From: Bacteroidota bacterium
GTDB taxonomy: Bacteria > Bacteroidota > Bacteroidia > B-17B0 > Aurantibacillaceae
Length of the DNA stretch: 64,000 bases
Assembly (NCBI GenBank): GCA_030681615.1
Contig: JAUXSA010000098.1
Span: 62,001-126,000, forward strand
Direction: 5' to 3'
Made by a program: the position numbers and the translations under genes. Of the stretch, positions 34,662-63,762 are shown in pieces. The notes under the pieces are model-generated. The model was not told the origin of the DNA, did not search any database, and saw only the letters and a program-made list of their open reading frames with translations. Numbering within the stretch: the first letter of the stretch is position 1; the number at the start of each line of letters is the position of its first letter.

Positions 34662-35029
34662 GGGCCCGACCGGTTTTGACAGTAAGCGCATCAGATAGGT
34701 AAGCATGTAGAGCGTTGTAAGACGAGCTCTTTAAACTGAACTTTCAAAATTTTTATTTGGCGAAGATAACTCTTACGCTATGGCTGCTTAATTTAGAATT
34801 AAGTGTCCTTTGCTTTCCAGGGAGCTAAGTTGCTCTGCGCCTTGGGTAAAGCATCATAAATGTGCAATTTGTTTTACAAATGTTACTATGTAAAACAATA
34901 TTAGTAACTAAGTTAAAGATTGGTTTGATATAACGCCTGCCTTTAGCCTACAATCAAGTTATAACTAAACGTGTAGAAAGCTTATTTTTTCCTTATTTGG
35001 ACGAGAGTTCGAATCTCTCCGGGTCCACC
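34662..35029 (+). ncRNA. ssrA: transfer-messenger RNA (tmRNA)
   Basis: 5' GGGCCCGACCGGTTTTGACAG and 3' GGACGAGAGTTCGAATCTCTCCGGGTCC-A acceptor/T-arm pair; internal tag ORF GGC GAA GAT AAC TCT TAC GCT ATG GCT GCT TAA at 34759-34791 (GEDNSYAMAA). Confidence 0.96.
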
Positions 35030-38184: not shown

Positions 38185-38691
38185 TTATTTAACTACTACA
38201 ATCTTCTCTTTCCCCGCAAAAGCAATTATTTGATTTTTATCAATTGTCTTAAACGTCACCCCATTAATAGATTGTCCAGTTTTTACTATTTGAGATACCC
38301 CATTTATTGAAATAAGTGCTGTGGTAGCTCCTGAGTTCTTATTTTGTACAATCCCTAAGTATTTTATTTCGAGGGCTGGTGTTATCGGTTTCGCGATCTT
38401 ATTTTCTTTTTTCTTATTGACGGAGTTGCCATTTAAGCGGGTTGAACCGTTTTGTGTTGAACTATTTTGGTTCTTCGGACCGGATTTTAAAAACGGATCA
38501 TCATAATCTAGCTTTAAAACGTAATTAAGGGTGTCGGTATTACGTTTTTTATTTAGAATAGGATTTGATTCGCTAAATGTTGGCAAGTCATTACTATCAT
38601 TGAAAGTTGTATATAGTTTAAAACCTAAATAACCCCAAACAAAAAGATTTAGCGGTAATAAAATAAATATGCTCTTTTTGGACTTAAACAT
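38185..38691 (-). CDS. PilP/GspC-like inner-membrane component
   Basis: Single N-terminal TM; C-terminal LEIKYLGIVQNKNSGATTALISINGVSQIVKTGQSINGVTFKTIDKNQIIAFAGKEKIVVVK; cluster context. Confidence 0.55.
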   Translation of the reverse strand: MFKSKKSIFILLPLNLFVWGYLGFKLYTTFNDSNDLPTFSESNPILNKKRNTDTLNYVLKLDYDDPFLKSGPKNQNSSTQNGSTRLNGNSVNKKKENKIAKPITPALEIKYLGIVQNKNSGATTALISINGVSQIVKTGQSINGVTFKTIDKNQIIAFAGKEKIVVVK

Positions 38692-38693
38692 TA

Positions 38694-39662
38694 TTACGGA
38701 AGCAATTTAAATTTAAATTGATTACTAAATGACGAACGATTTCCGACAGAATCTACTGATCTTACACGCCAATAGTAGTATGGAAAAGTGGTTGAGGAAA
38801 CAGACAATGAAGGATTTAACTGATTTACTTTAATTGACGTTGTGCCGATCCGCATTTTACTTGCAACATTGGTAAATAACGAATCAAATGCTACAAATAA
38901 ACTGTCATATTTTGTATCTAATGTACTATTTGTAATTACTCTTGTCCATTTTAAACTTATGGTATCTTTTACATTACTTCCATTAGCCGGGTAAGATAGT
39001 ATTGAAGAAACTGGTGCGGTTAAATCTACTGTATATGATAACGGGGTATTATATTGAGAGATACTATAATCATTTAATGCTTTTACTTTCCAGGTATATT
39101 TTCCATCTGCAAACGATGAATGATAAGTTGTATTTGTTGTTATCGTATCCTTAATAGTTGTGCTGGTTGAATTTAAAATCTGTATTTCATACTTATCAGC
39201 AGATGCGATAGCATTCCAGGAAAATGAAACAGCGTTAGTCCCGGTTAAATACCCGTCTATAGGTGTTATTGCGACTACAAGCTGTGAAGATAAATTGCTT
39301 GATGTATCAATCGTTAAGTTATAAGTGGTGTATTGTGAATTTCCTCCATTATTAACTGCCCTGATTCTCCATTGGTATGTTCCCGGAGTCAAACTCAAAA
39401 TAAATTTCGTTCCGGTCACATTTGTGTCTGCTATAAATTGTTGAACACTTAAAAAGGTAGGTTTCACAATTTGCACGTTATACTTTTGTGCTCCGTCTAA
39501 TTTCTCCCACCAAAAAGTTACTGTATTATTTGGTGTGGTTACATTATTTGCCGGGGCTAAAATGGTTACATAATCGTTTTTAATGTCCTTTACTATAAAG
39601 TCTTTACTGCACGATATGAAAATCATGAACAGTAATAAATAAATGTGTTTAAATATTTTCAT
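38694..39662 (-). CDS. lipoprotein with about three FN3-like domains
   Basis: Lipobox LFMIFISCSKD; repeated FxWxxxxxAxKYxVQI...YxWRVRAVN units. Confidence 0.7.
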   Translation of the reverse strand: MKIFKHIYLLLFMIFISCSKDFIVKDIKNDYVTILAPANNVTTPNNTVTFWWEKLDGAQKYNVQIVKPTFLSVQQFIADTNVTGTKFILSLTPGTYQWRIRAVNNGGNSQYTTYNLTIDTSSNLSSQLVVAITPIDGYLTGTNAVSFSWNAIASADKYEIQILNSTSTTIKDTITTNTTYHSSFADGKYTWKVKALNDYSISQYNTPLSYTVDLTAPVSSILSYPANGSNVKDTISLKWTRVITNSTLDTKYDSLFVAFDSLFTNVASKMRIGTTSIKVNQLNPSLSVSSTTFPYYYWRVRSVDSVGNRSSFSNQFKFKLLP

Positions 39663-40192
39663 TTTGAATTAGTTATTTGATTAAATGATTGAGTTATTAA
39701 TGTGAGGTATAAATTTTTTCTTTTCATCTGATGATCTTTTAATGAAAAGAATTTGGCTGAGACGACCTTAGCTGAGATCTTAAATTCATTCTCTAGCTTT
39801 AATTCTAATTTAAGCAGATCTGAAAAACTTCCTCTTAAGGTGAATGTATTTGTTTCGATTTTTATATTTTCACTACTATAGTGAGAAGAGGACGGTATTT
39901 CTGTGACTAAGCAATTATGATTTTCGGCGTAATCAGAAATCGTTGCAGTGAGTTTATCCCTAACAGATAAAGAATCGCTATACGCCTCTTCGATCATGGT
40001 CATTTTTGCTTTTAAAAATGGGATTTCTTTTTCCTTTTCTTTGAGCCAGGTTAGTTTTTGTTCGTTCTTCCTTATTTCATCATTTAATTCAAGTGTTTTT
40101 GAGAAGGACAATTTGTAGGCCATAACTATAAATAAAAAGAACAAAATGAAAATTGCAATACTTTTTTTCCGGTATGTTAACTTATCATACAT
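39659..40192 (-). CDS. PilO/GspM-like protein
   Basis: N-terminal TM plus coiled coil, then a ferredoxin-like segment NTFTLRGSFSDLLKLELKLENEFKISAKVVSAKF. Confidence 0.6.
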   Translation of the reverse strand: MYDKLTYRKKSIAIFILFFLFIVMAYKLSFSKTLELNDEIRKNEQKLTWLKEKEKEIPFLKAKMTMIEEAYSDSLSVRDKLTATISDYAENHNCLVTEIPSSSHYSSENIKIETNTFTLRGSFSDLLKLELKLENEFKISAKVVSAKFFSLKDHQMKRKNLYLTLITQSFNQITNSK

Positions 40193-41409
40193 CAGTTAGT
40201 AATTATTTTTAATTCAAAATTGGGTAAATACCCTTCTTTGTTAAAATGAAAGGTCTCTAAATTAATATCCCTAATAAAGTTTTGTGTTTTCAAAACATTT
40301 ACCCATTCATTAATGATCAAGCTTTTATTACAATTGCCTTTTATAACAATCGTATTTTTTTCGAAACTTGTCAGACTGTCTTCATCAATAGACTTTAGAA
40401 CTGGGTTAAACTGCCAGTCACATAAAACAATCTCTTCAGGAACGTTAGACGCAATTTTATCTGCCTGTTTGGCTATTAAAGTAGAGTTTAAAATTCCAGC
40501 ATGTTCAATAAGTAATTTTTTCTTTTCATAATCTTCAAAAAGCTTGGAGACCTGATCAAATTTACTTTGATAAATAGCAAGTTCTGTTTCCACTTTATTA
40601 TGTTTTTCAAATGAGTTGGTGTAAAGGAAAAAGTTAACAAGGCAGGCAAGAAAAATAAAAGCGATACAGGAATATGTCAAAATTTTCAGCTTGATCACTT
40701 CCAGATGTGACCGGCGCAAGTTAATTTCATTATTGTAATCTACAAATCCCCTAATTTGAATGAGATATATAAATGCAGCGGAGAAGCTTAAAATACTTGT
40801 TGAGGATACATTTATACCATCGAGATCATAATTATTTGAGGGTAGAATATTATTAGTTACTGACGAAGTGTTAGAATTTTCAAATTCAATGGAATAGGTT
40901 GTTGTATTAACAGAATCAAAATTATTAGTAATTGGCGGAACTAAATTTAAAAAGCACGGGCCAATTATCAGATCTGAAACCTGGTATTTGAGTGCGATCA
41001 ATTTATCTACGATGGTTTTCGCGTTCTCTTTCCTTATTAAAACTAAATATCCAAATGTTTCTGTTTGCGGATGGTGCTGAATGATAAACTCTTCAATATT
41101 TAGTGTCGGAAAGTTTTGGGTAATTAAAATTTCTAAATTGATCACTTCGTTTTCGGAAACTGAAATAGGTTTTATAATTATCCCTGATCCTGACAAAACA
41201 ATGTTTATTGGTATTTTGTTCTTTTTAATGACAGGAGGAATGCCTTCTATATTTTTAAAGGAACCAGAATCCACGAGATTAAGTTTTCCTGATTGATTTT
41301 TTAAAATGCAATAATTAAATGTTGGGCCTGAATCAGAAAGTATAATTTCCAAGCCACAGACACTTGACTTTACAAGATATTTATTTGGTATCCATTTTTC
41401 CCAAAACAT
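40192..41409 (-). CDS. PilM/PilN (GspL)-like protein
   Basis: N-terminal cytoplasmic part with central TM and NEINLRRSHLEVIKLK (PilN-like INLL motif region). Confidence 0.55.
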   Translation of the reverse strand: MFWEKWIPNKYLVKSSVCGLEIILSDSGPTFNYCILKNQSGKLNLVDSGSFKNIEGIPPVIKKNKIPINIVLSGSGIIIKPISVSENEVINLEILITQNFPTLNIEEFIIQHHPQTETFGYLVLIRKENAKTIVDKLIALKYQVSDLIIGPCFLNLVPPITNNFDSVNTTTYSIEFENSNTSSVTNNILPSNNYDLDGINVSSTSILSFSAAFIYLIQIRGFVDYNNEINLRRSHLEVIKLKILTYSCIAFIFLACLVNFFLYTNSFEKHNKVETELAIYQSKFDQVSKLFEDYEKKKLLIEHAGILNSTLIAKQADKIASNVPEEIVLCDWQFNPVLKSIDEDSLTSFEKNTIVIKGNCNKSLIINEWVNVLKTQNFIRDINLETFHFNKEGYLPNFELKIITN

Positions 41410-41410
41410 A

Positions 41411-43312
41411 TTAGCTATAAATGATAGTAGGTTTTATAAAAATTGTCAATTTATTTTGTGATTTTGTTTTAGTTCTCTCACCAAAGAACCATTTTAATAT
41501 TGGGATACGGGATAGACCCGGTAATCCTTTGCCGGAATGAGAATTGTTTGTTTCTTCAAGGCCTCCTAACATTATCATTTCGCCATTTTTTACGCGGATC
41601 AAAGATTCAAACGATCGGTTAATAGTTCCGGGAGGGGCGGTATTAGAAATTCGTTCTGTAAAGGATGATTGCTTAACATTAATGGTCATGGTTATTTGTT
41701 CATCACCCGAAACCTGTGGATCGATAGTTAATGAAAGATCTGCATTAACAGGTTTGTATTGTTGGGACTGTAAGATATTTTGTTGTGAATTTAAATTATT
41801 CACCAGGTTATTTTGAATTTCTAAATAGTATTCAGTCTTACCAATGCTCAACTTAGCTTCATGACCATTAAGCGTTGCAATTTGTGGAGTCGATCTTAAT
41901 TTTAAAACCCCCTGTTGTTCCAATGCTTTTATTGTGAGGTAAAAGTTAGGTGTCACATTACCTAAGTTTATTATCCCAAAACCATTTAAGCCACTAATTA
42001 GATTATTTACTGAAGAGGCGTTTAAACTTAGGTCTACTTGGGGTAAAACCTGTCCATTAGTTGGGTTTGCAGGTTTAGTCCCCAAACCGGCAGTTACACC
42101 GGCGGAAAAAGTATTGCTTTTACGGACGTCGGCAATAATAACTTCTATATGGACCAATGGAACCACTAGATCCACTTGTCTTATAAAAGTTTCTAATTCG
42201 TCAATCCGTGGTTGGGAACCACTTACAATTAACCCGTTCAAATCCTTAAATATTTTAATATCTATTCCTTTTTTAAGTTCAGCCGGAATGAAATCCATCA
42301 TCTTATCAATGGTCCTATTCTTTAATGTGATCAGTTTGTTTTGCCTTAAACCTTCAAGGTTCCTGTCTCCAAATAAGTATATGCCATTTTCTTTCTTAAA
42401 AGTAAATTCGGTACCATTAAAAAGTAATTTCAAAAAATCTTCATATTGTGCATCTTTAATTTTAACGGTTGAGTTTCCTTTAAGCTCGGAGAAGAGGAAA
42501 TAATTTATGCCGATCTCTTTTGATACAATATTTAAAATGTCATTAATTCCCATGTTTTGTACATCAATAGTGATATAGCCGTCCACAACTGTAATTGAAG
42601 GGTTTTTTGTAGATACCGTTGGTGTTTTTACTGCTCCTGTTAATTGATTTGCCGATGTATTTATATTTTGGGTTAACGGCTTTTTTTCAAATACATAAAA
42701 ATTATCCGGAGTAACAGAGATCTTTATATCATTTGCAAACGCCAGTTTTTCTAATGCATTGTTAAAGGAGACATCCTGAACATAACCGCTAACAAGTTTC
42801 CCTGCTAGTTCCGGTGAAAAAATAATATTTTTCCCACTTTTTTTAGTGATCTCTTTGGTTACATTCCCAAGCGTATCGTTTGTTAGATCAAAAGAGAGTA
42901 AGTCAGGAACTGTTTGATAAGTGATATTTAATGATTTCCTTTCAGGCAGTTTAATTGGTGTTATTGGCGGAATAAATTTTGCAAATGACATTATTGATCC
43001 CATAAATGTAATATCGAGATCGTGTTTTTTACATAAGAACAAAAACACATCTTTTGCCGAAACATTATTAAAATTGTTGGATATTTTAGCGTCAAGAAGC
43101 GGATCGACATTGACATTTAAATTATTGCTTGTTCCAATTGCACGAATAAATTCCTGGATCGAGGCGGAAGAAACGGAAAGTTCAACCTTATCATTTAATC
43201 CCGGATAATTTTTTGCCAACTGATTCAGTTTTTCGTCTAATAGATCAAACCTATCTTGGCCAGATGCAAGAACAAAAGAGAACAAAAGAAATATGATAAT
43301 TTTAATTTTCAT
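41411..43312 (-). CDS. secretin (GspD/PilQ-like)
   Basis: Signal peptide; STN/N-domain repeats (VSAKDVFLFLCKKHDLDI); VEVIIADV-like VHIEVIIADVRKS; GEMIMLGGLEETN...GLPGLSRIPILKWFFG secretin signature. Confidence 0.92.
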   Translation of the reverse strand: MKIKIIIFLLFSFVLASGQDRFDLLDEKLNQLAKNYPGLNDKVELSVSSASIQEFIRAIGTSNNLNVNVDPLLDAKISNNFNNVSAKDVFLFLCKKHDLDITFMGSIMSFAKFIPPITPIKLPERKSLNITYQTVPDLLSFDLTNDTLGNVTKEITKKSGKNIIFSPELAGKLVSGYVQDVSFNNALEKLAFANDIKISVTPDNFYVFEKKPLTQNINTSANQLTGAVKTPTVSTKNPSITVVDGYITIDVQNMGINDILNIVSKEIGINYFLFSELKGNSTVKIKDAQYEDFLKLLFNGTEFTFKKENGIYLFGDRNLEGLRQNKLITLKNRTIDKMMDFIPAELKKGIDIKIFKDLNGLIVSGSQPRIDELETFIRQVDLVVPLVHIEVIIADVRKSNTFSAGVTAGLGTKPANPTNGQVLPQVDLSLNASSVNNLISGLNGFGIINLGNVTPNFYLTIKALEQQGVLKLRSTPQIATLNGHEAKLSIGKTEYYLEIQNNLVNNLNSQQNILQSQQYKPVNADLSLTIDPQVSGDEQITMTINVKQSSFTERISNTAPPGTINRSFESLIRVKNGEMIMLGGLEETNNSHSGKGLPGLSRIPILKWFFGERTKTKSQNKLTIFIKPTIIYS

Positions 43313-44741
43313 TTATTAAGTAAGGATAAATTTCTTCTAATGTAGTTTCTCCTTTTTCAAAAAGCTGCCAGGCGTTTTCTGCTAGCTTATGTATGTTATT
43401 TGTTTTGTAATAGAGATCTATATCAGTGCTGTTTATTTTTATTTGTTCAGTTAATTCTTTTGTAATATTTACAACTTCATATATCGCTTTTCTTCCTTTA
43501 TACCCAGTATAATAACAGTTGTTACAACCTTGGGCAATCATATTAACAGATATTGTCCTTGTTTGAAATTGTACAGGTAGTTCTGTTTTATTAAGGACTA
43601 CTTCCTTTTTGCAATTGGGGCAAAGCGTTCTTACTAATCTTTGTGCAACAGATAAATTAAGCGTGCTTGCAATTAAATATCCTGGTATTCCCATATCTAT
43701 CAACCGTGAGATGGTTCCCCACGCAGAATTTGTGTGAATTGTTGATAATACCAAGTGTCCTGTCAGAGCTGCGCGAATTGCCATCTGGGCTGTTTGTGCA
43801 TCACGAATTTCTCCAAGCATGATAATATCAGGATCTTGTCTCAAAAAAGTTTTTAAAGCTTCCGAATATGTTAGTCCAATATCTTCTTTTAGCTGAACTT
43901 GGTTAACACCATCTAATGTATATTCAATCGGGTCTTCAATAGTAACAATATTGTTTGTTGGTTTATTAAGTTGTTTTAATGTGGCGTATAGTGTTGTTGT
44001 TTTTCCCGAACCGGTTGGTCCGCTTATCAGAATAATGCCATTAGGTTTTTTAACTGATAAATTATAACGCTCAAGTTCGTCTTCACGAAATCCCAATTTT
44101 GAGATATTTATATGACTGGCATCGCTCCCTAATAAACGCAGAACAATTTTCTCACCATATAACGTTGGTAAAATAGAAACACGAATATCCAACTTGCTAT
44201 TTGCTATTTGAAATCTAATACGCCCGTCCTGGGGCATTCTTTTTTCAGCAATATCGCAGGAGGCTGCAATCTTAATTTTATTAATAAGCGTTGGGTATTC
44301 TGCTTTGCTGAGTTTATGCCTGTCAATTAAAACACCATTCACCCTAAATCTGATCCTACATTTCTCGCCATATGTTTCGATGTGAATGTCTGAGCTATGA
44401 AGAGTTTTAGCTTCGTTAACAAGTGTTTCAAGAAAATTATCTGCCTGTACACTTAATTTTACCTGCTGAACCTGATTTAAATTTTCTTCAGTATTATTTT
44501 TAGGATACCATTCAAATAGTTTTTTTTCAATCTCTTGTAATGGCTTTGATATTAATTGAATTTTTTTGCCAAGTACGATCTCTAATTCGTCCCTGACACT
44601 GGAATTGTTCTTTTCTGTATTTATAAACAAACACAAAACATCATTTTCGACTTTATACGGAATAACCTTATAAAACCAAGCCTGGCCTAACGAGATGATA
44701 TTTTTTAAATCAGCCGGTAATATGTCTTTGTCTATGATCAA
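43302..44741 (-). CDS. GspE/PilB-type secretion ATPase
   Basis: ILISGPTGSGKTTTLYATLKQL, IVTIEDPIEYTLDGVNQVQLKEDIGLTYSEALKTFLRQDPDIIMLGEIRDAQTAQMAIRAALTGHLVLSTIHTN, CPNCKK. Confidence 0.97.
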   Translation of the reverse strand: MIIDKDILPADLKNIISLGQAWFYKVIPYKVENDVLCLFINTEKNNSSVRDELEIVLGKKIQLISKPLQEIEKKLFEWYPKNNTEENLNQVQQVKLSVQADNFLETLVNEAKTLHSSDIHIETYGEKCRIRFRVNGVLIDRHKLSKAEYPTLINKIKIAASCDIAEKRMPQDGRIRFQIANSKLDIRVSILPTLYGEKIVLRLLGSDASHINISKLGFREDELERYNLSVKKPNGIILISGPTGSGKTTTLYATLKQLNKPTNNIVTIEDPIEYTLDGVNQVQLKEDIGLTYSEALKTFLRQDPDIIMLGEIRDAQTAQMAIRAALTGHLVLSTIHTNSAWGTISRLIDMGIPGYLIASTLNLSVAQRLVRTLCPNCKKEVVLNKTELPVQFQTRTISVNMIAQGCNNCYYTGYKGRKAIYEVVNITKELTEQIKINSTDIDLYYKTNNIHKLAENAWQLFEKGETTLEEIYPYLINEN

Positions 44742-45001
44742 AGGATTAATTCAAAATGTTTTCGAAGTAAAATTTAGGCATAATATCTGTGCAAAATATA
44801 CTTTGCTTTTTTTTTCGTAGAAGTACGATATCGGCATTTGCATAAATACTAAACGATGATTTGTGTAAATACAGTTAGCTCAATTAGAGGAAATGCTTTT
44901 TAATAAATATTAACACTAATTAAATAATTCGTATGAGTACTTATATTTTTTTTTAATGAGGGTAATAATTTAGTAAACGTTAACCAATTCAAATAATTGA
45001 A

Positions 45002-45514
45002 ATGAAGTATCTAAGAATATTTATGTTTTTGAGTCTTGTATTAGTAACAAAACAGATCAACGCTCAGGCTATTACAACAGGAACAGTTACTGTTCTGACT
45101 TCTGATTCTTCTACATATACCATTTTGACCGGACAAATTATGAGTATAGGTGTGAATGGTAATTTTTCTGGTAAAATAAATCTAAATGGCGGTACAATAA
45201 TCAACAAAGGAATATTTCACCCGGATTCAACAATCTTCATAAAAGGTAGAATTATAAATAATGGAACCTTAACATTAGATTCTCAGGTTTCGCTTGGTGC
45301 AAATAGTTTTTTGAGTAATAATATAGGAGGAGCAATAAATATTGCTGGCAACTTAACTATTGCTGATGGAACATTAATAAATAATGGCACATTGAGTGTT
45401 ACTCAAGACCTTCAAAATAATTCAGGCACTTTAAATAATAGCCACATAATAAATTGCGATCATCTAACAGGCAATAATGTAATCACTAACACTGGAACAA
45501 TTAACACCAATTAA
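45002..45514 (+). CDS. exported beta-helix-like repeat protein
   Basis: Signal peptide; repeated NGG/NNGTL-type short repeats. Confidence 0.55.
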   Translation: MKYLRIFMFLSLVLVTKQINAQAITTGTVTVLTSDSSTYTILTGQIMSIGVNGNFSGKINLNGGTIINKGIFHPDSTIFIKGRIINNGTLTLDSQVSLGANSFLSNNIGGAINIAGNLTIADGTLINNGTLSVTQDLQNNSGTLNNSHIINCDHLTGNNVITNTGTINTN

Positions 45515-45518
45515 AATT

Positions 45519-46154
45519 ATGATGATAGCTAAAATAAATATTAAATTTTTTCTTGTAACAATATTAGTTTGTTTCTTGTTTCAGGAAAACTTTTCACAAC
45601 GTTGCACGGTAAGCGTTACGGTTAGCCCATCTACCACAACTTTTGTTGTTGGAGCAACAAATTGTTCTCTGACGTCTACTCCGGTAGGTGGGGTTCCACC
45701 TTATACTTATTATTGGGAACCAAATGTTTATTTCGTTGGTCCAAGCACAAATACCAGCCAAAACCCAGTAGTAAATCCACCAATATCTATAGTTTATACT
45801 GTTACTGTTATTGATAATTCTGATTGTAGTGCTTCAGCAACCGTTGAAGTAATAGCAAAGCCGTATGCATTATTAAACAAAACGCCGGATGGAGAATATT
45901 ATAAGCTTGCTGATAATAAGTTGCTTTTCAAATATGATGAACAATATGCGGCAACGAGTCTTGTATATTATGTTATGAATAAAACACATTCTGTTGTTGC
46001 TTCTTATGCTGTAAATAATATTTCATCCAGTTTAGTCGTGAATATGGGAGACAATCGATATTATTTAGATGCAGCAGCATTACCAACCGGCTATTATACT
46101 TTAGAAGTGATTAATGAAAAAAAAGAAAAATTATACTTAAGATTTAAAAGATGA
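45519..46154 (+). CDS. exported protein with PKD/SprB-like domain and T9SS-CTD-like tail
   Basis: GVPPYTYYWEPN...YTVTVIDNSDCSASATVEV; tail ALPTGYYTLEVINEKKEKLYLRFKR. Confidence 0.6.
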   Translation: MMIAKINIKFFLVTILVCFLFQENFSQRCTVSVTVSPSTTTFVVGATNCSLTSTPVGGVPPYTYYWEPNVYFVGPSTNTSQNPVVNPPISIVYTVTVIDNSDCSASATVEVIAKPYALLNKTPDGEYYKLADNKLLFKYDEQYAATSLVYYVMNKTHSVVASYAVNNISSSLVVNMGDNRYYLDAAALPTGYYTLEVINEKKEKLYLRFKR

Positions 46155-46684
46155 TGAATATGCTAAAAAATTTAATTATAGGAGTTGCGTTCATTGCAGG
46201 TATTGCGGGGTTTGTTATCTCGCTTAATCACAAAGATGTTGAACTTGTTTACGTTGACATGGGAAAATTGTATGACAATTTTGCGTTGACCAAAGAACTT
46301 AATGTTGATATGGAGAAAATCATAAAGACTAGAAAAAGCATAACAGATTCATTATATGAAGACCTGAGGGTAAAAACTCAGGAATTGAAATTCAAGGAAA
46401 AGAAAACTATTGAGGATATTCAAAAAATAGCAAAAATTGAAGAAGAGTACATGTACAAACAACAACAGTTTGAAAAAGAAAACCAAATGACCTCTGCTGA
46501 TTATATGAATAAAATATGGAATCAGATCAATCAATTTGTTGAGGATTATGGAACTGAAAAAAAATACGCCTTTGTTCTTGGGGCAAATGGACAGGGCAAT
46601 ATCATGTTTGGAGATAAAGGCAAGAATGTAACAACAGATGTGATCGCGTATATTAATAATCGTTACAACGATAAAATGAAGTAA
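46151..46684 (+). CDS. OmpH/Skp-like periplasmic chaperone
   Basis: Signal anchor; VDMGKLYDNFALTKELNVDMEK, long charged coiled coil, IWNQINQFVEDYGTEKKYAFVLGANGQGNIMFGD. Confidence 0.75.
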   Translation: MMNMLKNLIIGVAFIAGIAGFVISLNHKDVELVYVDMGKLYDNFALTKELNVDMEKIIKTRKSITDSLYEDLRVKTQELKFKEKKTIEDIQKIAKIEEEYMYKQQQFEKENQMTSADYMNKIWNQINQFVEDYGTEKKYAFVLGANGQGNIMFGDKGKNVTTDVIAYINNRYNDKMK

Positions 46685-46686
46685 GA

Positions 46687-47292
46687 ATGTTTAAAAACTT
46701 AACCATAATAATTTTCTTGATTTTTGCCACATGTGCGTGTAATAAAAAAAAGTCATTGGCTTCCGATGATTATATTAAATATTTAAATTCAAAAGATGGC
46801 GGTTTAATAAATCTTAAAGAGTTTAATGACATAGTATTTAAAGCAAAAATTCAAACTCCTGAAATGATCGCCCTTTCTTATTCCTCAGGCTCTGAAATGA
46901 ATCAGATTAAGTATAAAAAAGATCTTCAAGATCATAAGGGGCAAATAAATTTTATTGTGTTAATAGAAGATGCAAATAGCAATAAGAAAGTTAAAGAAGC
47001 GGTTGTAACAAAAGAAACTTACGGTCAAATATTAGCTTATGGCAATACGGGGCTGAAAGATGATTTTAAATTAATACAAGGTGTCGATACAATATATTGT
47101 AGTCTTGTGATTGTTGAGCCGGCCAATTCCTTGCAGCCGATTGTGCGAATAGCTTTAAGTTTTTCGGGAGTTAATTCATTATCAGAAAGTGACCTAACCT
47201 TGATCTATAATGACAAAATATTTAACCAGGGTCCTATAAAGTTTAATTATTCAAAAAGCACATTTCAAAATATTCCTGATCTTAAATTATAA
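46687..47292 (+). CDS. lipoprotein of unknown function
   Basis: Lipobox IFATCACNKKK. Confidence 0.65.
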   Translation: MFKNLTIIIFLIFATCACNKKKSLASDDYIKYLNSKDGGLINLKEFNDIVFKAKIQTPEMIALSYSSGSEMNQIKYKKDLQDHKGQINFIVLIEDANSNKKVKEAVVTKETYGQILAYGNTGLKDDFKLIQGVDTIYCSLVIVEPANSLQPIVRIALSFSGVNSLSESDLTLIYNDKIFNQGPIKFNYSKSTFQNIPDLKL

Positions 47293-47295
47293 ATT

Positions 47296-53799: not shown

Positions 53800-53805
53800 T
53801 TAAAT

Positions 53806-54534: not shown

Positions 54535-57500
54535 ACATTATGAAGAAATTACTTTTTCTCATTTATTTTATGGCGTTAGTGTCCATTTTGCAAAGCCAGG
54601 TGGAGACAAGGAACAGCCGTGCATACGCTAATATCCTACAGATACCAGGTGCTTTTATTCAATCGGAAGATGATAAATATACCGGAAGCAGTGGCTGGGT
54701 AAGTGGATTTAGTAATTACGAAAATAAAGCGATCATAGAATTAGGTTTGGATGAGGATAAACATTTTAAATATGCGACATCATTTAAAATTTGCGCTACC
54801 TTTGACATAGCTCTTACAGATGTTACTACAACCGTTGTAACAACATATACAAATGTTCAGCTTGATATAGATTATGATCCGCTTGAGGCAACAAGGTATA
54901 AAGATAAATCACAAATTGTTTTTCCCGATTTTTACAAGGTTAGGGTATATAATGTAAGATTCAGAACTTGCACAGTTGGTACAGGTTGTTCAACATGCCT
55001 TACACCTTTTGCCTCTGCCGATGTTTATTTGCAGGCCGAGATTGCAACAAACCGGATCTATGATTTTGGTTTTAGCAGTGTTCTTGCCGGGGGTGAATTA
55101 ACCGATTCGTTAACTACAACCCAGCAACTCAAAATTAGTTGGGGTTACGTTTCGGGCGCAACAGAGTATGAACTGGAGTACACGTATGTTGATAACTACG
55201 CAATGCCATCAGTAACTACAACACCAATTAGTTCATCAGTCTTAACTTACGATCTGGAACATGATGCCACCAGGATCATAACTAATTTTAATCATTATTA
55301 CATACCCTTAACTTATGAACGTGGCTACATTATCTACAGGTTAAGACCCATTGGAACAAATACTGTATTAGAAAGGATAGAAGGAGATTGGTATGGAGCT
55401 CCTGTATCTGGTACAATAGCTGCTACAAGTTTTACGAAAGCACTTACTACTTCTTTTTCATCAGATCTTAAAAATTGGGAAGGCGTAAAAACATTTGCGG
55501 AACATGGTAAAACGGGGGTGGGTGTTAGTTTTAATGATGCGCTTGGTTTTAAAAGACAAAGCCTTGCAAGGATAAATACTGATGCAAAAACAATTAGCCA
55601 AAGTACATTGTATGATTTTTTTGGAAGGCCCGCGATAAATTTACTTCCAGCACCTGTTAGCGGATTGAATTTGGATTACAGGTTAAATCTAAATATGATC
55701 ATTCCGTCTGGTACAACATCAGTTGTTTTTGATAAAAATGTTTTTGATAACTATACAGCCAACACAAATGTATGTACTACTTTATCTTTTACACTTGATC
55801 CAGCTAACTCGGTTGGCGCCGGAAACTATTATTCACCTTCAAATGCAAATAAAGAAGGTTATCAGGGATATGTGCCTAACGCAAAAGGTTTGCCTTATAC
55901 TCAAGTAAAATATAAACCAGATGCACTTGGACGCATTACACGTCAAACGATGCCAGGCGGACTACATACAATTGGTTCTGATAAAGACATCCGGTATTTT
56001 TATACCCAGCCTATGCAAGTGGAATTGGATAGATTATTTGGAAGCGAAGCGGGTAGGTCGAAATACCATTTCAAAAACATCACCATAGATCCGAATGGGC
56101 AAACTTCAGCAAATTATAAAGACAGGTTCGGGCGTACAATTGCTACATCGCTTATAGGATTAAACCCGTTAAATGTCGACATTCTAACGAATAATGTTAC
56201 AACAACTCTACTAACCGAGTATTTGCATCTCGCACCAACTAACGATCCTGATCCGGTTGACCGTTGTAAAGAAGTTAACACTACTTTTTTTGTGTCATCG
56301 GCTAGTACAGAAGGATATGTTTATCATACCACTCTTGGAAGTTTTGCTTCAACCTGTAACATATCGACTTGCTACGATTGCGTTTATGATGTTGAATTAA
56401 CAATTAAAGATGATTGCCAAAACGACGTATTGGTTTATTCTCAGTCTATTGGCAAACAACCCCCATATGCCGCGGGAGCATGCACAGCAAGTCCAACATC
56501 GACACTTATATTAGGCACATCTATATCAACCCCCGTTTCGATTGTTTTTCCAACTGCTGGTGTTTATACAGTTTATAAAAAGATCTGTGTGAGCTCAGCT
56601 CCACTTGATGATTATACTGCAGATTTTATTAGCAATGGTTGCAACGATAAAAAATGTTCTCTGCTTGATAGTATTTTAAGTGAGACCGATTTTACAGGAT
56701 GTGGCACGCCTACAGATTGTGCGACCTGTATGGCATCAGTGGAAGCTTATACCGCGGCGACCAGTTCTTCTGTTCAGCCTGGTCCGGGTGATCCTCCTGG
56801 TGTCTTCAATAACCCTGTATATACACCATCCATGACGCCTCAACAGTATAGCCAGGCGCTTGAGAATTGTGATATGCTTTGTCCTCCAAAAGGACTGTGT
56901 CAAAAATATACTAAATTACTACTTGCAGATTTTTATCCTAATTCAGGCCAATATGCGCAAACCGTTAGTACAAATACCCTTCTATGGGCGTATTCTATTT
57001 TTAATTCTGCGAATAGCCTCACAACATCACCAACATTTTCTACGCCAATTTCAACTTATTCAAATGCAGGTGGTACAGCCGATCTTGTCCAATTAACCAA
57101 TAGCCCTACAAGTACTGTTGCACCAACCGGTTTAACAGCCTCCCAATACGATTATTATTATAAGAAAAGCTGGGCTAAATCTTTTTTAGACATTCATCCA
57201 GAGGCTTGTAAATTATATTTTTATTGCAACATCATTGGATCATCTACAGAATATGATGACGATATGAATTATATCACGCACTTTGACACTGCTTGCACGG
57301 CAGGTTTTTTAAGACCTATTAATGCTATCTACAGCAGTTATAGCGGTACGCCTTGCGCATCATATACTACTAATCCTGATCCTGTGCAAAGTTTAATTAC
57401 GCTCCCCACATTTTCAACAGCTATTATTAATTTTAAAAACGAGATCACTCAAAATTTTAATGGTTCGGGTTTAGATATTTATCAATACACAGTTTTACAA

Positions 57501-60500
57501 TCGGTTCCTACTGCCTCATCTGCAACAATAACAACTGGCGATTATGTCGGTGATGACGCGTGTTATGCTGACATTGATTGGATCAGGTTTCGAAATTTTT
57601 ATCAGGTCAAAAAATATGCACTGTACCAGAATTTATATACATTATATGCGGCAAACCCCTCTGCGTTTGGTTATACGTTAGCACCAGCCTGTGGATATGC
57701 ACCTGCTGGTTTTACAAGTCACTTTCCTAACTGGATGGATTCTTTAAATGCGGTCTTTTCTGCCACACCCTCTATAGCTTCGTCTGTTACATTAGCACTT
57801 AACACACCTACAAGCGTCAGTACAAATAGTACAGTGGCGGCATCGTATACGGCATCAATGAATACATTTAGCAGTAACTTAATATCAAACACCAATAGTA
57901 GCTTGACAAGTCAATGCACAACAGCATGCGAGTCATATACCAACAACTGGTTTAATATTTTAAATACAGCCTGCCCTATATTTAGTGGAACCACTACGCT
58001 TGTTCAAAATAACATTATCGCCGGGCTGGTCGGGGTCTGTATGACCGGCTGCGATTATACAACTAATTTGTTGGGTGCGAGCACTTCCTCGCCAGGTGCG
58101 TTTTATACAATTCCAACCACCACAGTAACAGTCAATTCCTTTCAGGGGGTGCTTAACCATTATTTGGGACTTAATGCCTGCAACGCAGTTGTCCTGTCAC
58201 AGCCGGTTGCATATCCTACACAAACTGTTCAAAACGGAAACTCAATGACAAGTTGCAAATGCGACCAGCTATTGCAAGTGGAAGCAGATTTTCTTGCTAT
58301 GCAAACGGCCAGCACATTGCCGGCTGGAATTTCTTCCGCCTGGCAACTATTCAGGAAACAAAACGGTTACGACCTCTTTGATTATAATATTTTAACCTGC
58401 TTGTGTAACAGTGCAACAAGCAATACCTGGACGTCGGGCCACTTATGGGTGTCCTCAGAGCTTGCAGCTTTGGCTCAAAATACATTTGAGGTTAACCCAA
58501 GGTTAGAATGTACCAGTTGTTTGAGTTGTACAAATGTGGTTACGGCCATTAACAGCCTTACGTTACCTGTTGGTTCATACTCAAATGTAATTGAGGCAAT
58601 TACTCAGGATTCAACAAACCAGATCTTTGCAATAGCTTCTCTAAATAACACTTTCGGTGTGCACCCCTTCCAGGATTATTTAGATCTATATGCAGATTGC
58701 AATACGTTTACAACCAGTTCGGCATATACATTTTCAAATACAATTACTGTCCAGGCAATAGATCTTTTTAAATATTTGGATCAGCTTGTCAGTACCAATT
58801 TACTTTCAAACGGACCCCGGCCGGTAAAAATGTGCACAGATAGCAAATTTCTGCTCTCATCACTTTACTCCGGTCCTTTGCCCTCGATAACGGCATACAC
58901 ATATAATATTTCAACACCAACGCTTAGTTACATTACTTTTTCAATTTCCTCTTCACCAACGGTCAACATTGCAGTGATCACTTTATCTGTTCCAGGAACA
59001 TACACCGGCACGTGGAGCAACTTGTCGTATCTCAATAATTTTGTTGCATATTGTCCAACACCTTCGGCAGGGGTTAATTATATGTTCCAGGTAAATGCTG
59101 TTACTGATAATTTAAGTGTGATAACGCTTACAGGTAATGTGGTTAACATGGCATATCCCATTTGTAATTTAAGCTCAGATGTTAATCCTGTGCCAACGCT
59201 TTGCCCTTATGAAATTGTTCCGAAAGATCCCTGCGTGGTTAACCTCATAAACGGAGCCCTCACGCAGGCAGCGCTTTTAGCGCAGCAAGCTATGGATGGA
59301 GCTATTCTTACTTTTCAAAACGATTATATGGATGAGTGTTATAATTCCATTAACGAAACTTTTACCCGCGAATATAACGGCGCTGATGAATATAATTTTA
59401 CTCTGTATTATTACGACGAAGGCGGCAACCTGCAACGCACAGTAGCCCCTAACGGTTCAGACCCTGGCATACTTACAAGTGTGGTCGCACCTCTCTCTCC
59501 AACAGCAACATTATACCCCGCATATAGTAGTTCAACAGCTGTTGACTTAAATTATGTAACCGATAATAAGTTTCATAGTTTTAATATTCCGTTGCAGGGA
59601 TCAAGCGTTGACGACGGGCAAACCTTTTATGTCTATGATGCAGTCGGACGTTTAGTAGCTTCACAGAACGCTAAGCAGTTTGCCGCCAGTACAGCCTCAA
59701 ATAATATTTACAGTTATACAATTTATGATAAGATCGGCAGGATCGAGCAGGTTGGTGTGGTTACATTAACCGCTTCGCTTACCGGCCCCGTAAATTATGC
59801 CACTTTTAATTCAATGATGAGCCTTTTAACACCTTCTGTTAAAACACAGGTTACTACCATGAATTACGATACGCCTGTTACAACTGCAACAGTTCTTGCA
59901 GCTTTTACAAATAGTTTACAAAGCAATTTGCGAAACCGGGTGGCGTATGTTACTTACGAAGATGTGCTCGATGCTTCCGTCTCTACTTATGACCACGCCA
60001 CTTATTACAGTTATGATGATCATGGCAATGTGCATGAACTTATTCAGCATATAAAAGATCTGGATGTTTTTGGGCAGGGCTTTAGAAAAGTAATTTACGA
60101 TTATGAACTGGTAAGCGGTAATATGGTAAAGGCTACTTTTCAACCAGAGCAAACTGACCAACTCATACATAAATATTATTATGATGTCGATAACCGTTTG
60201 CATGAAGTATTTACGAGTAAGGATGATATGAACTACGATCGTGATGCGAAATATTTTTATTATGAGCATGGTCCTTTGGCAAGGGTAGAGCGTGCAGATA
60301 AAAAAGTGCAGGGCTCCGATCATTTTTACACTATACATGGTTGGGTAAAAGGTATTAATGGTGATGCATTAAATCCTATTGGTGATCCGGGAAAAGATGC
60401 TACATCAGGCACAGCTTATCTATCGTCTTACGCGGATATTCATCAATTTATTGCTAATGATGCTGCCGCGTATAGTTTAAATTATTATAACACCACAACA

Positions 60501-63239
60501 AATACCGATTATGCTGCCATTAAAACATACACAACTACCGATATTTCTCCTACAATGAATCTTAGTAATTTATATACCAATACGGCACCTTTTTATCTTG
60601 ATGATTTAGGCGCGGGTGATGGAGCCAACTTATTTAACGGCAACATAGGCAGCATGGTAACGAGCTTTATTGATAAAGATCCATCCAATGCCATTACAAA
60701 TAATACACCATTCCCGCAGATTGCAGGTTTTAGATACGACCAACTACATCGCATTACAAAAATGAAAACCTTCCGTGTATTTGGTGCCAATACATGGACG
60801 GCGCCAACAAGCGGAAATTACGATGATAGTTACAAAATGAATTTTACTTACGATAATAACGGTAACATTTTAACCCTTTTGCGTAACGGACCAACCTCTA
60901 CATTAAATCCGGGCTCACCAACCGCTATGGATAATCTTAGTTATACCTATTTTAAAACCGTTGCCAACGGTGGTGTTACACTTAATTATAACTCAAATAA
61001 GCTGGCCTGTTTAAACGATGCTGTTACTGCATCCAATTATAATGTGGATGTGGATGATTACGTTTATTGTTCTGAACATAACGCCCGCTATTATTACGAT
61101 GAGATAGGGAATTTAATAACCGACAACGGCGAGTACATTGCCACAATTGACTGGACAGTTGACCGTAAATTGAAAAGAATAACACGCGACCCGGCAGCCA
61201 TGATCACTGCCAGCGTTACTCTACCGGATATAGAATACGAATACAACGCGCAAAGGCAGCGTGTGGCCAAAATTGTAAAACCACGTGCAGGAGCCACCAG
61301 GACACTAACACCGGTAAACGACTGGTTATTTACTTATTACAGTTACGATGCAAGCGGCAATGTGCTGGCCGTATACGATCGTAATTCTGTATTGGTTAGT
61401 GGCTCTACCTATCGTGATATACTTACTTTGAGCGAGCAGGATATTTACGGTAGCAACCGCCTGGCCTTGACGCGCCCGACTAATACACTCTCTACATGGT
61501 TGTATACTTATAGTCTTTCTTCAGTTGGCTGCGGTGGTATTGGAATTGGCAGTGGCTGTCGCACAGTGCTTACCCCGCCGGCAGACACATACAGTCCTCC
61601 GGCCAGCGGTTATATAACCGATAGGCACCTGGGCTTTAAAGAATTTGAGCTCACCAACCATTTAGGAAATATTAATGCAGTAGTAAGCGACAGGAAAGTG
61701 CAGGCAAATTTTAACAGTACAGCCTGCGCCACTTATTTTGATTTTAACAGCACAGTGCCCGGTGCCATGCTCGCGCAGAATATGACACTCGGTATAACGT
61801 CTGGCTCTTTGCAGTGCGATATATGGAACGGCTGGGGCATCTCGGGTTTAGACGCGAGGGTAGGTTACAATGTTCCTGCAGCCACCAGTTTTTTAATAGA
61901 GTACGATTTTAACCCTGGCACATTAACCCTGGGCGATGGTTTTTATATTATACCTTACGATCATGACGGCAGCTTTTACATGGGTCCTTATTATTGCGAT
62001 GGTTCATTTGTACCTCCTGCTGCACATTATACTTTTACATATACCCCTTCTGTAACCGGCGCAACTGTATCCACCTACCTGGCATTTAATACCAATAGCA
62101 GCAGCACGCATACTTTTAGTATAGATAATTTAAGCATGTGCCCGTTAAATGCCTTGCCAACGGTTGCCAGCTACAGCCCCGATATTTTAAGCGAGACCGA
62201 TTACTATGCCTTTGGCATGGACATGCCGGGCAGGGATTGGCATGTATCTAACTACCGCTACAGTATGAATGGGCAGGAAAAAGATGATGAGATCTTTAGT
62301 GGTGCAATGAGTGCTGAATTTTGGGAATATGATAGTAGGATTGGAAGACGGTGGAATTTAGATCCAGTTATTCATGAGTATGAAAGTCCTTATGCTTGTT
62401 TTCATAATAATCCAATTTTAGTAAGCGATATAAACGGAGATGATGGTGAGCCTGCAAATCCTAATGGTACAAAAGGCGGGCCAAAAGAAGGAGAAACCTG
62501 TTCTAACCCAGTGCACCCTGACGGAACTCAAGAAAGCCCTGAAAGATTTCATGATGGATCTTGGGGTGTAGAAGGCGGCACGTTAAATGAGATTGTTGTT
62601 TCACCTAGTAATCAAAATCAAAGCCCTCAAAGAAAAGAATTTGAAAAATGGGATCATTCCGATCCAAATCTAGATTTTAGTCTTGCAAATGCTGTAAATC
62701 ATGGTGGTACTGCAACTGCAGAAAATCTTGGACAAGTATTAGGCGCTTCTTTAATGAGGAAAGACATTTGCTATATTACTGGAGATTTATTGAATAAGGT
62801 TAAAAATGATGAAAGTTGGATAAAAGCAAATCAGGCTATTTATGATAGGATTAACAGCGATCCAAGATACGGATCTGAGAATTTTTCTTTAAATGGTCTT
62901 ACAAGTGCAGAGTTTGGCGGAAGTGACCAACTTTCTGCATCTACTGACCCTTTAACTTGGTCTCTTCGACATGCAAACGTAAAATATTGGGCAGAAATTA
63001 AGAAAGATGGGACGGTAATACTTGAATATCGCCTTGCAGATAGACTTGATTTGAGTCCTCATGGAGCTGTGGATGATGCTTATGACATGGTATCTTATGC
63101 CTTAGGGCTTATTTGGCATGATGGTCTCGGGGGGCATAAAAATATGGCGACTAGAGCTATTTGGTTTAATGTTTGTAATATGCTAAAAGGCAGAAATTCA
63201 AAACCTAAACAGGGTGAAATGAAGGCAGCAACCAACTAA
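54531..63239 (+). CDS. giant RHS/YD-repeat protein (2902 aa) with variable C-terminal candidate toxin domain
   Basis: Signal peptide; YD repeats (YYDEGGNLQRTVAPNG, YDAVGRLVASQNAK, YDKIGRIEQVG, YYDVDNRLHEVFTSKD); RHS core YRYSMNGQEKDDEIFSGAMSAEFWEYDSRIGRRWNLDPVIHEYESPYACFHNNPILVSDINGDD. Confidence 0.93.
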   Translation: MNIMKKLLFLIYFMALVSILQSQVETRNSRAYANILQIPGAFIQSEDDKYTGSSGWVSGFSNYENKAIIELGLDEDKHFKYATSFKICATFDIALTDVTTTVVTTYTNVQLDIDYDPLEATRYKDKSQIVFPDFYKVRVYNVRFRTCTVGTGCSTCLTPFASADVYLQAEIATNRIYDFGFSSVLAGGELTDSLTTTQQLKISWGYVSGATEYELEYTYVDNYAMPSVTTTPISSSVLTYDLEHDATRIITNFNHYYIPLTYERGYIIYRLRPIGTNTVLERIEGDWYGAPVSGTIAATSFTKALTTSFSSDLKNWEGVKTFAEHGKTGVGVSFNDALGFKRQSLARINTDAKTISQSTLYDFFGRPAINLLPAPVSGLNLDYRLNLNMIIPSGTTSVVFDKNVFDNYTANTNVCTTLSFTLDPANSVGAGNYYSPSNANKEGYQGYVPNAKGLPYTQVKYKPDALGRITRQTMPGGLHTIGSDKDIRYFYTQPMQVELDRLFGSEAGRSKYHFKNITIDPNGQTSANYKDRFGRTIATSLIGLNPLNVDILTNNVTTTLLTEYLHLAPTNDPDPVDRCKEVNTTFFVSSASTEGYVYHTTLGSFASTCNISTCYDCVYDVELTIKDDCQNDVLVYSQSIGKQPPYAAGACTASPTSTLILGTSISTPVSIVFPTAGVYTVYKKICVSSAPLDDYTADFISNGCNDKKCSLLDSILSETDFTGCGTPTDCATCMASVEAYTAATSSSVQPGPGDPPGVFNNPVYTPSMTPQQYSQALENCDMLCPPKGLCQKYTKLLLADFYPNSGQYAQTVSTNTLLWAYSIFNSANSLTTSPTFSTPISTYSNAGGTADLVQLTNSPTSTVAPTGLTASQYDYYYKKSWAKSFLDIHPEACKLYFYCNIIGSSTEYDDDMNYITHFDTACTAGFLRPINAIYSSYSGTPCASYTTNPDPVQSLITLPTFSTAIINFKNEITQNFNGSGLDIYQYTVLQSVPTASSATITTGDYVGDDACYADIDWIRFRNFYQVKKYALYQNLYTLYAANPSAFGYTLAPACGYAPAGFTSHFPNWMDSLNAVFSATPSIASSVTLALNTPTSVSTNSTVAASYTASMNTFSSNLISNTNSSLTSQCTTACESYTNNWFNILNTACPIFSGTTTLVQNNIIAGLVGVCMTGCDYTTNLLGASTSSPGAFYTIPTTTVTVNSFQGVLNHYLGLNACNAVVLSQPVAYPTQTVQNGNSMTSCKCDQLLQVEADFLAMQTASTLPAGISSAWQLFRKQNGYDLFDYNILTCLCNSATSNTWTSGHLWVSSELAALAQNTFEVNPRLECTSCLSCTNVVTAINSLTLPVGSYSNVIEAITQDSTNQIFAIASLNNTFGVHPFQDYLDLYADCNTFTTSSAYTFSNTITVQAIDLFKYLDQLVSTNLLSNGPRPVKMCTDSKFLLSSLYSGPLPSITAYTYNISTPTLSYITFSISSSPTVNIAVITLSVPGTYTGTWSNLSYLNNFVAYCPTPSAGVNYMFQVNAVTDNLSVITLTGNVVNMAYPICNLSSDVNPVPTLCPYEIVPKDPCVVNLINGALTQAALLAQQAMDGAILTFQNDYMDECYNSINETFTREYNGADEYNFTLYYYDEGGNLQRTVAPNGSDPGILTSVVAPLSPTATLYPAYSSSTAVDLNYVTDNKFHSFNIPLQGSSVDDGQTFYVYDAVGRLVASQNAKQFAASTASNNIYSYTIYDKIGRIEQVGVVTLTASLTGPVNYATFNSMMSLLTPSVKTQVTTMNYDTPVTTATVLAAFTNSLQSNLRNRVAYVTYEDVLDASVSTYDHATYYSYDDHGNVHELIQHIKDLDVFGQGFRKVIYDYELVSGNMVKATFQPEQTDQLIHKYYYDVDNRLHEVFTSKDDMNYDRDAKYFYYEHGPLARVERADKKVQGSDHFYTIHGWVKGINGDALNPIGDPGKDATSGTAYLSSYADIHQFIANDAAAYSLNYYNTTTNTDYAAIKTYTTTDISPTMNLSNLYTNTAPFYLDDLGAGDGANLFNGNIGSMVTSFIDKDPSNAITNNTPFPQIAGFRYDQLHRITKMKTFRVFGANTWTAPTSGNYDDSYKMNFTYDNNGNILTLLRNGPTSTLNPGSPTAMDNLSYTYFKTVANGGVTLNYNSNKLACLNDAVTASNYNVDVDDYVYCSEHNARYYYDEIGNLITDNGEYIATIDWTVDRKLKRITRDPAAMITASVTLPDIEYEYNAQRQRVAKIVKPRAGATRTLTPVNDWLFTYYSYDASGNVLAVYDRNSVLVSGSTYRDILTLSEQDIYGSNRLALTRPTNTLSTWLYTYSLSSVGCGGIGIGSGCRTVLTPPADTYSPPASGYITDRHLGFKEFELTNHLGNINAVVSDRKVQANFNSTACATYFDFNSTVPGAMLAQNMTLGITSGSLQCDIWNGWGISGLDARVGYNVPAATSFLIEYDFNPGTLTLGDGFYIIPYDHDGSFYMGPYYCDGSFVPPAAHYTFTYTPSVTGATVSTYLAFNTNSSSTHTFSIDNLSMCPLNALPTVASYSPDILSETDYYAFGMDMPGRDWHVSNYRYSMNGQEKDDEIFSGAMSAEFWEYDSRIGRRWNLDPVIHEYESPYACFHNNPILVSDINGDDGEPANPNGTKGGPKEGETCSNPVHPDGTQESPERFHDGSWGVEGGTLNEIVVSPSNQNQSPQRKEFEKWDHSDPNLDFSLANAVNHGGTATAENLGQVLGASLMRKDICYITGDLLNKVKNDESWIKANQAIYDRINSDPRYGSENFSLNGLTSAEFGGSDQLSASTDPLTWSLRHANVKYWAEIKKDGTVILEYRLADRLDLSPHGAVDDAYDMVSYALGLIWHDGLGGHKNMATRAIWFNVCNMLKGRNSKPKQGEMKAATN

Positions 63240-63270
63240 TATTAGTAAATAGATTATATTTGTTGTAAAA

Positions 63271-63762
63271 ATGCATCGATTCAAGATAATTTCTGTTGTA
63301 TTACTATTATTACTTTTTATAATACTTACCAATTGTAGAAATAAGAATTTTTATTCTTATAATATGAAAAGTGATTATTATAGACTACCAATATATAATC
63401 CAATAGAAATTTTATCTTATGATGGTGGGTCGCATTGGTTTATCAAGTTACCTTATAAAACAATATTAGGTTATAGTGAATTTAATTACATTAAAGAATT
63501 AGTATTAACTGACTCAGTGCTAGTTCTAAAATCCAATGATTTAGGATTTACTTACGAAGGTAAAAATTATTGTCCATCATGGTTAATAATTAATTTTAAA
63601 AATAAAACCGAAAAAATTCTTTTAAGCCAACAAGAATTTGAAAAAGAAATGCAAAATTTAAAACTAAACAGTTTCAAATTAAAAAATATTGATACACTTT
63701 TTAAGGAATTTGATTCAAAAAAAGACGAAAAAGGTGAATGGCATTTAGATAAAATAAATTAG
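63271..63762 (+). CDS. lipoprotein; candidate immunity protein to the RHS C-terminal domain
   Basis: Lipobox FIILTNCRN; 163 aa; starts 32 nt after the RHS stop codon. Confidence 0.5.
   Translation: MHRFKIISVVLLLLLFIILTNCRNKNFYSYNMKSDYYRLPIYNPIEILSYDGGSHWFIKLPYKTILGYSEFNYIKELVLTDSVLVLKSNDLGFTYEGKNYCPSWLIINFKNKTEKILLSQQEFEKEMQNLKLNSFKLKNIDTLFKEFDSKKDEKGEWHLDKIN

What the first reader, a model, noticed from the sequence alone, without database searches (positions are those of the whole stretch)
38185..63762. Candidate RHS toxin locus paired with a minimal T2SS/T4P-like secretion machine
Seen: a six-gene minus-strand cluster (GspE/PilB ATPase, secretin, PilM/N-like, PilO-like, FN3 lipoprotein, PilP/GspC-like) shares a 260-bp intergenic region with a plus-strand operon. 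That operon encodes small exported proteins, a Skp-like chaperone, a lipoprotein, two giant RHS-type proteins and a candidate immunity gene. Known: RHS toxins in Gram-negatives are mostly linked to T6SS or Tc complexes, and in Bacteroidota often T9SS. Here both giant proteins carry Sec-type signal peptides and the 2902-aa protein shows no obvious T9SS C-terminal domain. Inference: Sec export, chaperoning by the Skp-like protein, then outer-membrane passage through the secretin could form a dedicated type II-like RHS delivery system.
Basis: partly seen in the sequence, partly recalled or inferred. Interest (0 to 1): 0.82.

Follow-up and report, generated by a model that had tools for sequence, protein, structure and literature searches.

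The report
Type II secretion machine paired with RHS-toxins
In this uncultured Bacteroidota bacterium, and in many relatives across the phylum, the genes for a complete type II-like protein-export machine sit next to an operon for a giant, exported, toxin-tipped RHS protein, which suggests the little-understood Bacteroidota type II system is a delivery route for weapons used against other bacteria.

Summary
The genes are real. The minus-strand cluster (GspE, secretin, GspL/M/C-like, FN3 lipoprotein) is one half of a complete Bacteroidota type II-like system; GspF, pseudopilins G/I/J/K and a prepilin peptidase lie on another contig of the same genome, beside an orphan RHS toxin tip. Giant2 is a polymorphic RHS toxin: conserved core (1459/1540 pairs similar), hypervariable tips (2/1540), several tips matching bacteriocin or nuclease families. 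The machine-RHS linkage holds across the phylum: giant1 occurs in 23/26 GspD-positive versus 30/271 other genomes, and lies within 40 kb in 19/27 cases (0.95 expected). The link is asymmetric: the machine almost never occurs without giant1, but giant1 often occurs without any secretin, and every such genome tested has T9SS. Best reading (0.58): the machine is mainly an RHS exporter. Secretion is not shown; T9SS export is the main rival. I found no earlier report of this pairing; Denise 2019 had flagged the Bacteroidetes 'T2SS' as a possible new secretion type.

The parts
38185..38691 (-). GspC/PilP-like inner-membrane protein (168 aa)
   Evidence: Pfam T2SSC E 0.003; only PDB hit at E<1 is a GspC domain, E 0.35; conserved position in 66/80 clusters
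38694..39662 (-). FN3-like lipoprotein (322 aa), conserved between GspM and GspC; role unknown, possible pilotin or secretin-associated protein
   Evidence: fn3/Big_13 weak Pfam; family present in 72/80 clusters; lipobox by eye
39659..40192 (-). GspM/PilO-like protein (177 aa)
   Evidence: position and single N-terminal TM by eye; no credible family hit; conserved in 65/80 clusters
40192..41409 (-). GspL / PilM-N-like protein (405 aa)
   Evidence: position; no Pfam or credible PDB match; conserved in 75/80 clusters
41411..43312 (-). GspD secretin (633 aa), the only secretin in the genome
   Evidence: PF00263 4e-38; GspD structures 2e-26; one match genome-wide
43302..44741 (-). GspE/PilB assembly ATPase (479 aa)
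   Evidence: PF00437 3e-126; best NCBIfam type_II_gspE, below its cut-off; single copy
44742..45001 (.). 260-bp intergenic region between the divergent operons
45002..45514 (+). p170, small exported repeat protein
   Evidence: family in front of other RHS cassettes
45519..46154 (+). p211, short member of a modular adhesin family (Ig/PKD/SprB/CBM, up to ~2000 aa) with a shared C-terminal domain
   Evidence: C-terminal domain distantly like T9SS type A CTD, hhalign prob 74
46151..46684 (+). Skp/OmpH-like periplasmic chaperone
   Evidence: PF03938 4.6e-18; PRK10780 Skp 2.5e-10; conserved in cassettes
46687..47292 (+). cassette lipoprotein (lip201 family)
   Evidence: conserved in cassettes with lipobox by eye
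47296..53799 (+). giant1 (2167 aa), conserved partner protein, possibly SpvB/RHS-related
   Evidence: weak SpvB/DUF6531/RHS_repeat matches in single homologs
53806..54534 (+). LolA3-like periplasmic protein between the giants
   Evidence: NF053579 1.7e-19, below cut-off; conserved in cassettes
54531..62438 (+). giant2, constant part: DUF6443 and RHS core
   Evidence: PF20041 4e-8; RHS fold matches to E 5e-17; Rhs_assc_core in 11/14 homologs
62439..63236 (+). giant2 hypervariable C-terminal tip (266 aa), candidate toxin of unknown family
   Evidence: tips unalike in 1538/1540 pairs while cores match in 1459/1540; no Pfam match for this tip
63271..63762 (+). candidate immunity protein (163 aa, lipobox LTNC)
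   Evidence: ORF 32 bp after giant2; most other tips are likewise followed by a small ORF

Best explanation
The locus encodes a dedicated type II-like export system and its main cargo, an RHS polymorphic toxin. Proposed steps: (a) giant1, giant2, the Skp-like protein and the LolA3-like protein cross the inner membrane by Sec (inferred from N-terminal signal-like sequences). (b) In the periplasm the Skp-like protein, the lipoprotein and the LolA3-like protein keep the giants competent, and giant2, possibly with giant1, closes into an RHS shell holding the variable tip (the RHS fold of giant2 is supported; assembly is inferred). (c) The GspE/F-driven pseudopilus (GspG/I/J/K) and the GspD secretin move the giants across the outer membrane (inferred from the strong genetic linkage). 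(d) The adhesin-like gene at the head of the operon aids attachment or targeting (inferred). (e) The tip acts on competing bacteria, and the small lipoprotein downstream gives self-immunity (inferred from tip families and gene order).
For: Complete machine in the genome. Cassette next to machine genes, on one contig, in about 20 other genomes of many families. RHS proteins within about 10 kb of GspD in 43 of 80 loci, including Hymenobacter, Adhaeribacter, Pedobacter, Longitalea, Acidiluteibacter, Ekhidna, Mesonia, Sporocytophaga and Bacteroidales. 23/26 phylum-sample genomes with the machine have giant1; 19/27 machines linked within 40 kb against 0.95 expected; G130 has two machines, each with its own giant1. 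Within the genus 12/12 versus 5/28. Giant2 RHS fold, variable tips, bacteriocin, nuclease and peptidase tips, small ORFs after most tips. Sec-type N-termini, as type II cargo requires.
Against: 15 genomes with giant1 have no secretin at all, and two of these that were read keep the cassette genes, so the cassette does not need the machine everywhere. All 28 genomes tested have the T9SS translocon SprA. No secretion data. A mature RHS shell is large for a secretin channel. The only functional study of such a system found (Wang 2017, PMC5553014) reports a cellulose-utilisation defect. Fisher tests are not corrected for phylogeny.
Confidence: 0.58

Rival explanations
1. The RHS giants leave through the type IX system, perhaps together with the adhesin-like p211 protein that carries a T9SS-like C-terminal domain; the linked type II machine serves a related but separate step such as surface pseudopili for contact.
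For: SprA in 28/28 giant1 genomes, including 15 without a secretin. p211 C-terminal domain resembles T9SS CTDs (hhalign prob 74) and one family member has a true T9SS type B domain.
Against: Neither giant matches a T9SS sorting domain; giant2 ends in a variable tip instead. Does not explain why the machine almost never occurs without giant1 and is physically linked to it.
Confidence: 0.18
2. The machine exports other cargo (the adhesin or degradative enzymes) and the RHS cassette is a neighbour that travels in the same variable island.
For: The C. hutchinsonii system affects cellulose use (PMC5553014). Recombinases lie around the locus. RHS cassettes also exist elsewhere in the genome (G050, G065).
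Against: Linkage persists across many families and classes with changed local gene order, which simple hitch-hiking does not predict. Machine without giant1 is rare (2/37 and 3/26).
Confidence: 0.13
3. The machine is a type IV pilus or DNA-uptake apparatus, and killing by RHS toxins supplies DNA, including new tip cassettes, for uptake.
For: Bacteroidetes systems group with T4aP in Denise 2019 (PMC6668835). Orphan tip cassettes lie beside the machine genes.
Against: No second GspE/PilT-like ATPase found in this genome. Gene content includes GspC-, GspI-, GspJ- and GspK-type genes. Competence genes were not looked for.
Confidence: 0.07

Closest known systems
Putative T2SS of Cytophaga hutchinsonii (CHU_3191-3201; Wang 2017, PMC5553014) and the F. 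johnsoniae / Pedobacter clusters listed there
   Same: Gene set D, E, F, G, O, minor pseudopilins and C/L/M candidates; phylum; scattered gene order
   Different: That paper does not mention RHS and links the system to cellulose use; here RHS toxins are the conserved neighbours
Bacteroidetes 'T2SS' as treated by Denise 2019 (PMC6668835)
   Same: Same kind of system; [quoted passage not shown]
   Different: The passages read there offer no cargo or gene partner; the RHS link is added here
RHS polymorphic toxins (Zhang 2012, PMC3482391)
   Same: RHS core, variable C-terminal toxins, immunity genes, orphan cassettes, Bacteroidetes members with signal peptides
   Different: There 'T2SS' means any signal-peptide toxin and the table gives no signature neighbour gene; here the actual machine genes are shown to be neighbours
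Tc toxins (B and C subunits)
   Same: Two giant proteins, one RHS with hypervariable end; fold of giant2 closest to C subunits and T6SS Rhs cores
   Different: No A-subunit-like gene seen in the operon; SpvB similarity of giant1 only weak; linked to a type II-like machine
TANFOR polymorphic toxins of Bacteroidetes (PMC7073777)
   Same: Large Bacteroidetes proteins with variable C-terminal toxins
   Different: That paper's text does not mention T2SS, and RHS only in its references

Membership tests
Type II secretion system | GspE ATPase, GspD secretin, GspF platform | tested here: met
Type II secretion system | Pseudopilins with prepilin signal (major and minor) and prepilin peptidase | tested here: met
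   C184: FTLAE/STLPE-type N-termini in GspG, I, J; GspK-like; peptidase-like GspO by order and topology
Type II secretion system | GspC/L/M assembly platform | tested here: inconclusive
   GspC weak; GspL and GspM by position only
Type II secretion system | Groups with proteobacterial T2SS in trees | not tested
   Denise 2019 (PMC6668835) reports it does not; no tree made here
Type II secretion system | Secretin-dependent export of cargo | not testable with these tools
   needs mutants
RHS polymorphic toxin | RHS repeats/core with RHS fold | tested here: met
   giant2:
RHS polymorphic toxin | Constant core with hypervariable C-terminal toxin | tested here: met
RHS polymorphic toxin | Cognate immunity gene downstream | tested here: inconclusive
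   small ORF 32 bp downstream; common pattern; no activity test
Tc toxin | SpvB-type N-terminus in the B-like protein | tested here: inconclusive
   SpvB in 1 of 15 giant1 homologs, E 0.008; low-confidence model, no fold match
Tc toxin | TcA translocation subunit | not tested
   none among the operon genes by Pfam; genome not searched
T6SS Rhs effector | PAAR/VgrG-type N-terminus, no signal peptide | tested here: not met
   no PAAR in giant1 or giant2; signal-like N-terminus by eye
T9SS cargo | C-terminal sorting domain | tested here: not met
   none in giant1 or giant2 by Pfam/NCBIfam

The most novel reading that the evidence does not exclude
The Bacteroidota 'T2SS' is a distinct secretion system of the type IV filament superfamily, specialised for delivering giant RHS toxin complexes, with its own lipoprotein, chaperone and adhesin partners.
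Probability: 0.33. Interest if true: 0.88.

Novelty: new variant of a known kind. Interest (0 to 1): 0.72.

Why it matters
The cargo of the Bacteroidota type II-like system is an open question: one study reports a cellulose phenotype, and a superfamily survey suspected a new secretion type. A phylum-wide physical link to RHS polymorphic toxins gives a specific, testable cargo, and would make it the first dedicated pairing of a type II-like machine with RHS toxins that I could find. It would add a delivery route for antibacterial toxins in a phylum where mostly T6SS and T9SS are considered.

Tried and rejected
Chance neighbourhood: rejected. 'Minimal' machine: rejected, the rest is on C184. A hidden divergent secretin in genomes with RHS but without GspD: rejected, none found in 15 genomes. 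T9SS sorting domains on the giants: none. Giant1 structure: AlphaFold model unusable (pLDDT 39.5) and its PDB search meaningless. Giant1 versus giant2 profile comparison: no similarity. PDB sequence searches with giant1 and giant2 profiles: nothing useful. Own tip: no toxin family. RHS_repeat Pfam search of the own genome at E<0.001: no match, so that Pfam model misses this family. Literature searches for RHS plus type II secretion in Bacteroidota: no report found.

Full report
What is there. All genes named in the finding exist. On the minus strand, 38185-44741 encodes a GspC-like protein, an FN3 lipoprotein, GspM- and GspL-like proteins, a GspD secretin and a GspE ATPase; ATPase and secretin are certain.

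The machine is complete. The same genome has one GspF, on contig C184, in an operon with GspK-, GspI-, GspJ- and GspG-type pseudopilins and a prepilin peptidase-like gene. There is one GspE, no second PilT-like ATPase at E<1e-20, and one secretin in the whole genome. C184 also carries an orphan RHS core with a different tip next to a tyrosine recombinase.

The cassette is conserved and linked to the machine. In 26 loci read, the order [p170/p211]-Skp-lipoprotein-giant1-(giant1b)-LolA3-giant2-small ORF recurs, mostly next to GspG-O-E-D-L-M-FN3-C and exp221-K-I-J-F. A GspD scan of named genomes gave 80 loci from Cytophagales, Flavobacteriales, Sphingobacteriales, Chitinophagales and Bacteroidales; 43 have giant1 or giant2 within about 10 kb, a lower bound because many contigs end early and some cassettes lie just outside (L096 is the contig of G079, where the cassette starts about 18 kb away).

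Statistics. In 120 relatives, 35 of 37 machine-positive and 9 of 83 machine-negative genomes have giant1 (Fisher 1.7e-19). In 297 genomes across the phylum the numbers are 23/26 and 30/271 (9.6e-17). Of 27 machines, 19 lie within 40 kb of a giant1 on the same contig; random placement predicts 0.95 (tail 8e-24). G130 has two machines, each beside its own giant1. Within the genus the split is 12/12 versus 5/28. The Fisher tests ignore phylogeny; the linkage test is less affected.

Giant2 is an RHS polymorphic toxin. It has DUF6443; 11 of 14 homologs of its C-terminal part match the RHS-associated core; and a modest-quality model of residues 1556-2640 matches RHS structures up to E 5e-17 (mean pLDDT 49.6). 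Comparing 56 proteins, cores resemble each other in 1459/1540 pairs and tips in 2/1540. Of 55 tips scanned, single tips match Colicin_D, Colicin_M, EndoU, AHH, NlpC/P60 and a CDI nuclease, and two match Tox-MPTase2. Most tips are followed by a small ORF, often with a signal peptide or lipobox by a crude rule, as here. Giant1 remains unplaced: single homologs match RHS_repeat, DUF6531 and SpvB weakly, the model failed, and it does not align with giant2.

Counter-evidence. The dependence is one-sided. Fifteen genomes with giant1 have no secretin of any kind; two of them that were read (G023, G101) keep cassette genes. All 28 genomes tested, with or without the machine, have the T9SS translocon SprA. 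The head gene of the cassette belongs to a family of modular adhesins whose C-terminal domain is distantly like T9SS sorting domains. So T9SS export, at least of the adhesin, must be kept open.

Comparison with what is known. The machine is the Bacteroidetes 'T2SS' first tested in C. hutchinsonii (PMC5553014); Denise 2019 (PMC6668835) found that it groups apart from other T2SS and suggested a possible novel secretion type. Zhang 2012 (PMC3482391) listed many RHS toxins, including Bacteroidetes ones, under 'T2SS/Sec', meaning a signal peptide, with no signature neighbour gene. Searches of the open library found no report of the pairing; subscription papers are not covered.

Verdict.

Noticed in passing
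L019:3565-5804 (own contig C184); also G037, G064, G030, G023, L084, L129: Orphan RHS-core-plus-tip ORFs lie next to a XerC-like tyrosine recombinase in 8 of 21 cases counted, suggesting a recombinase-linked reservoir of toxin tips.
   Followed up: partly
window 38694-39662 and 72 of 80 homologous clusters: An FN3-like lipoprotein is a constant part of the Bacteroidota machine between GspM and GspC; candidate pilotin or secretin partner of unknown function.
   Followed up: partly
L033:16241-17224, L062:16791-17675, L053:5891-7129, L045:14058-16082: Proteins with a motif like SAMLDVESTTKGLLIPR, reminiscent (from memory) of phage tail-fibre-like proteins, lie beside or between RHS proteins in four relatives.
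   Followed up: no
window 45519-46154 and p211 family: The adhesin family heading the cassette shares a ~95-aa C-terminal domain without a Pfam or NCBIfam match, distantly like T9SS type A sorting domains.
   Followed up: partly
L006:1338-4952 (just right of the window): Two proteins with T9SS-like sorting tails by eye lie shortly after the RHS operon; SprA is present in the genome.
   Followed up: partly
window 34993-36549: Large serine recombinase (Resolvase/Recombinase domains) next to the secretion cluster.
   Followed up: no
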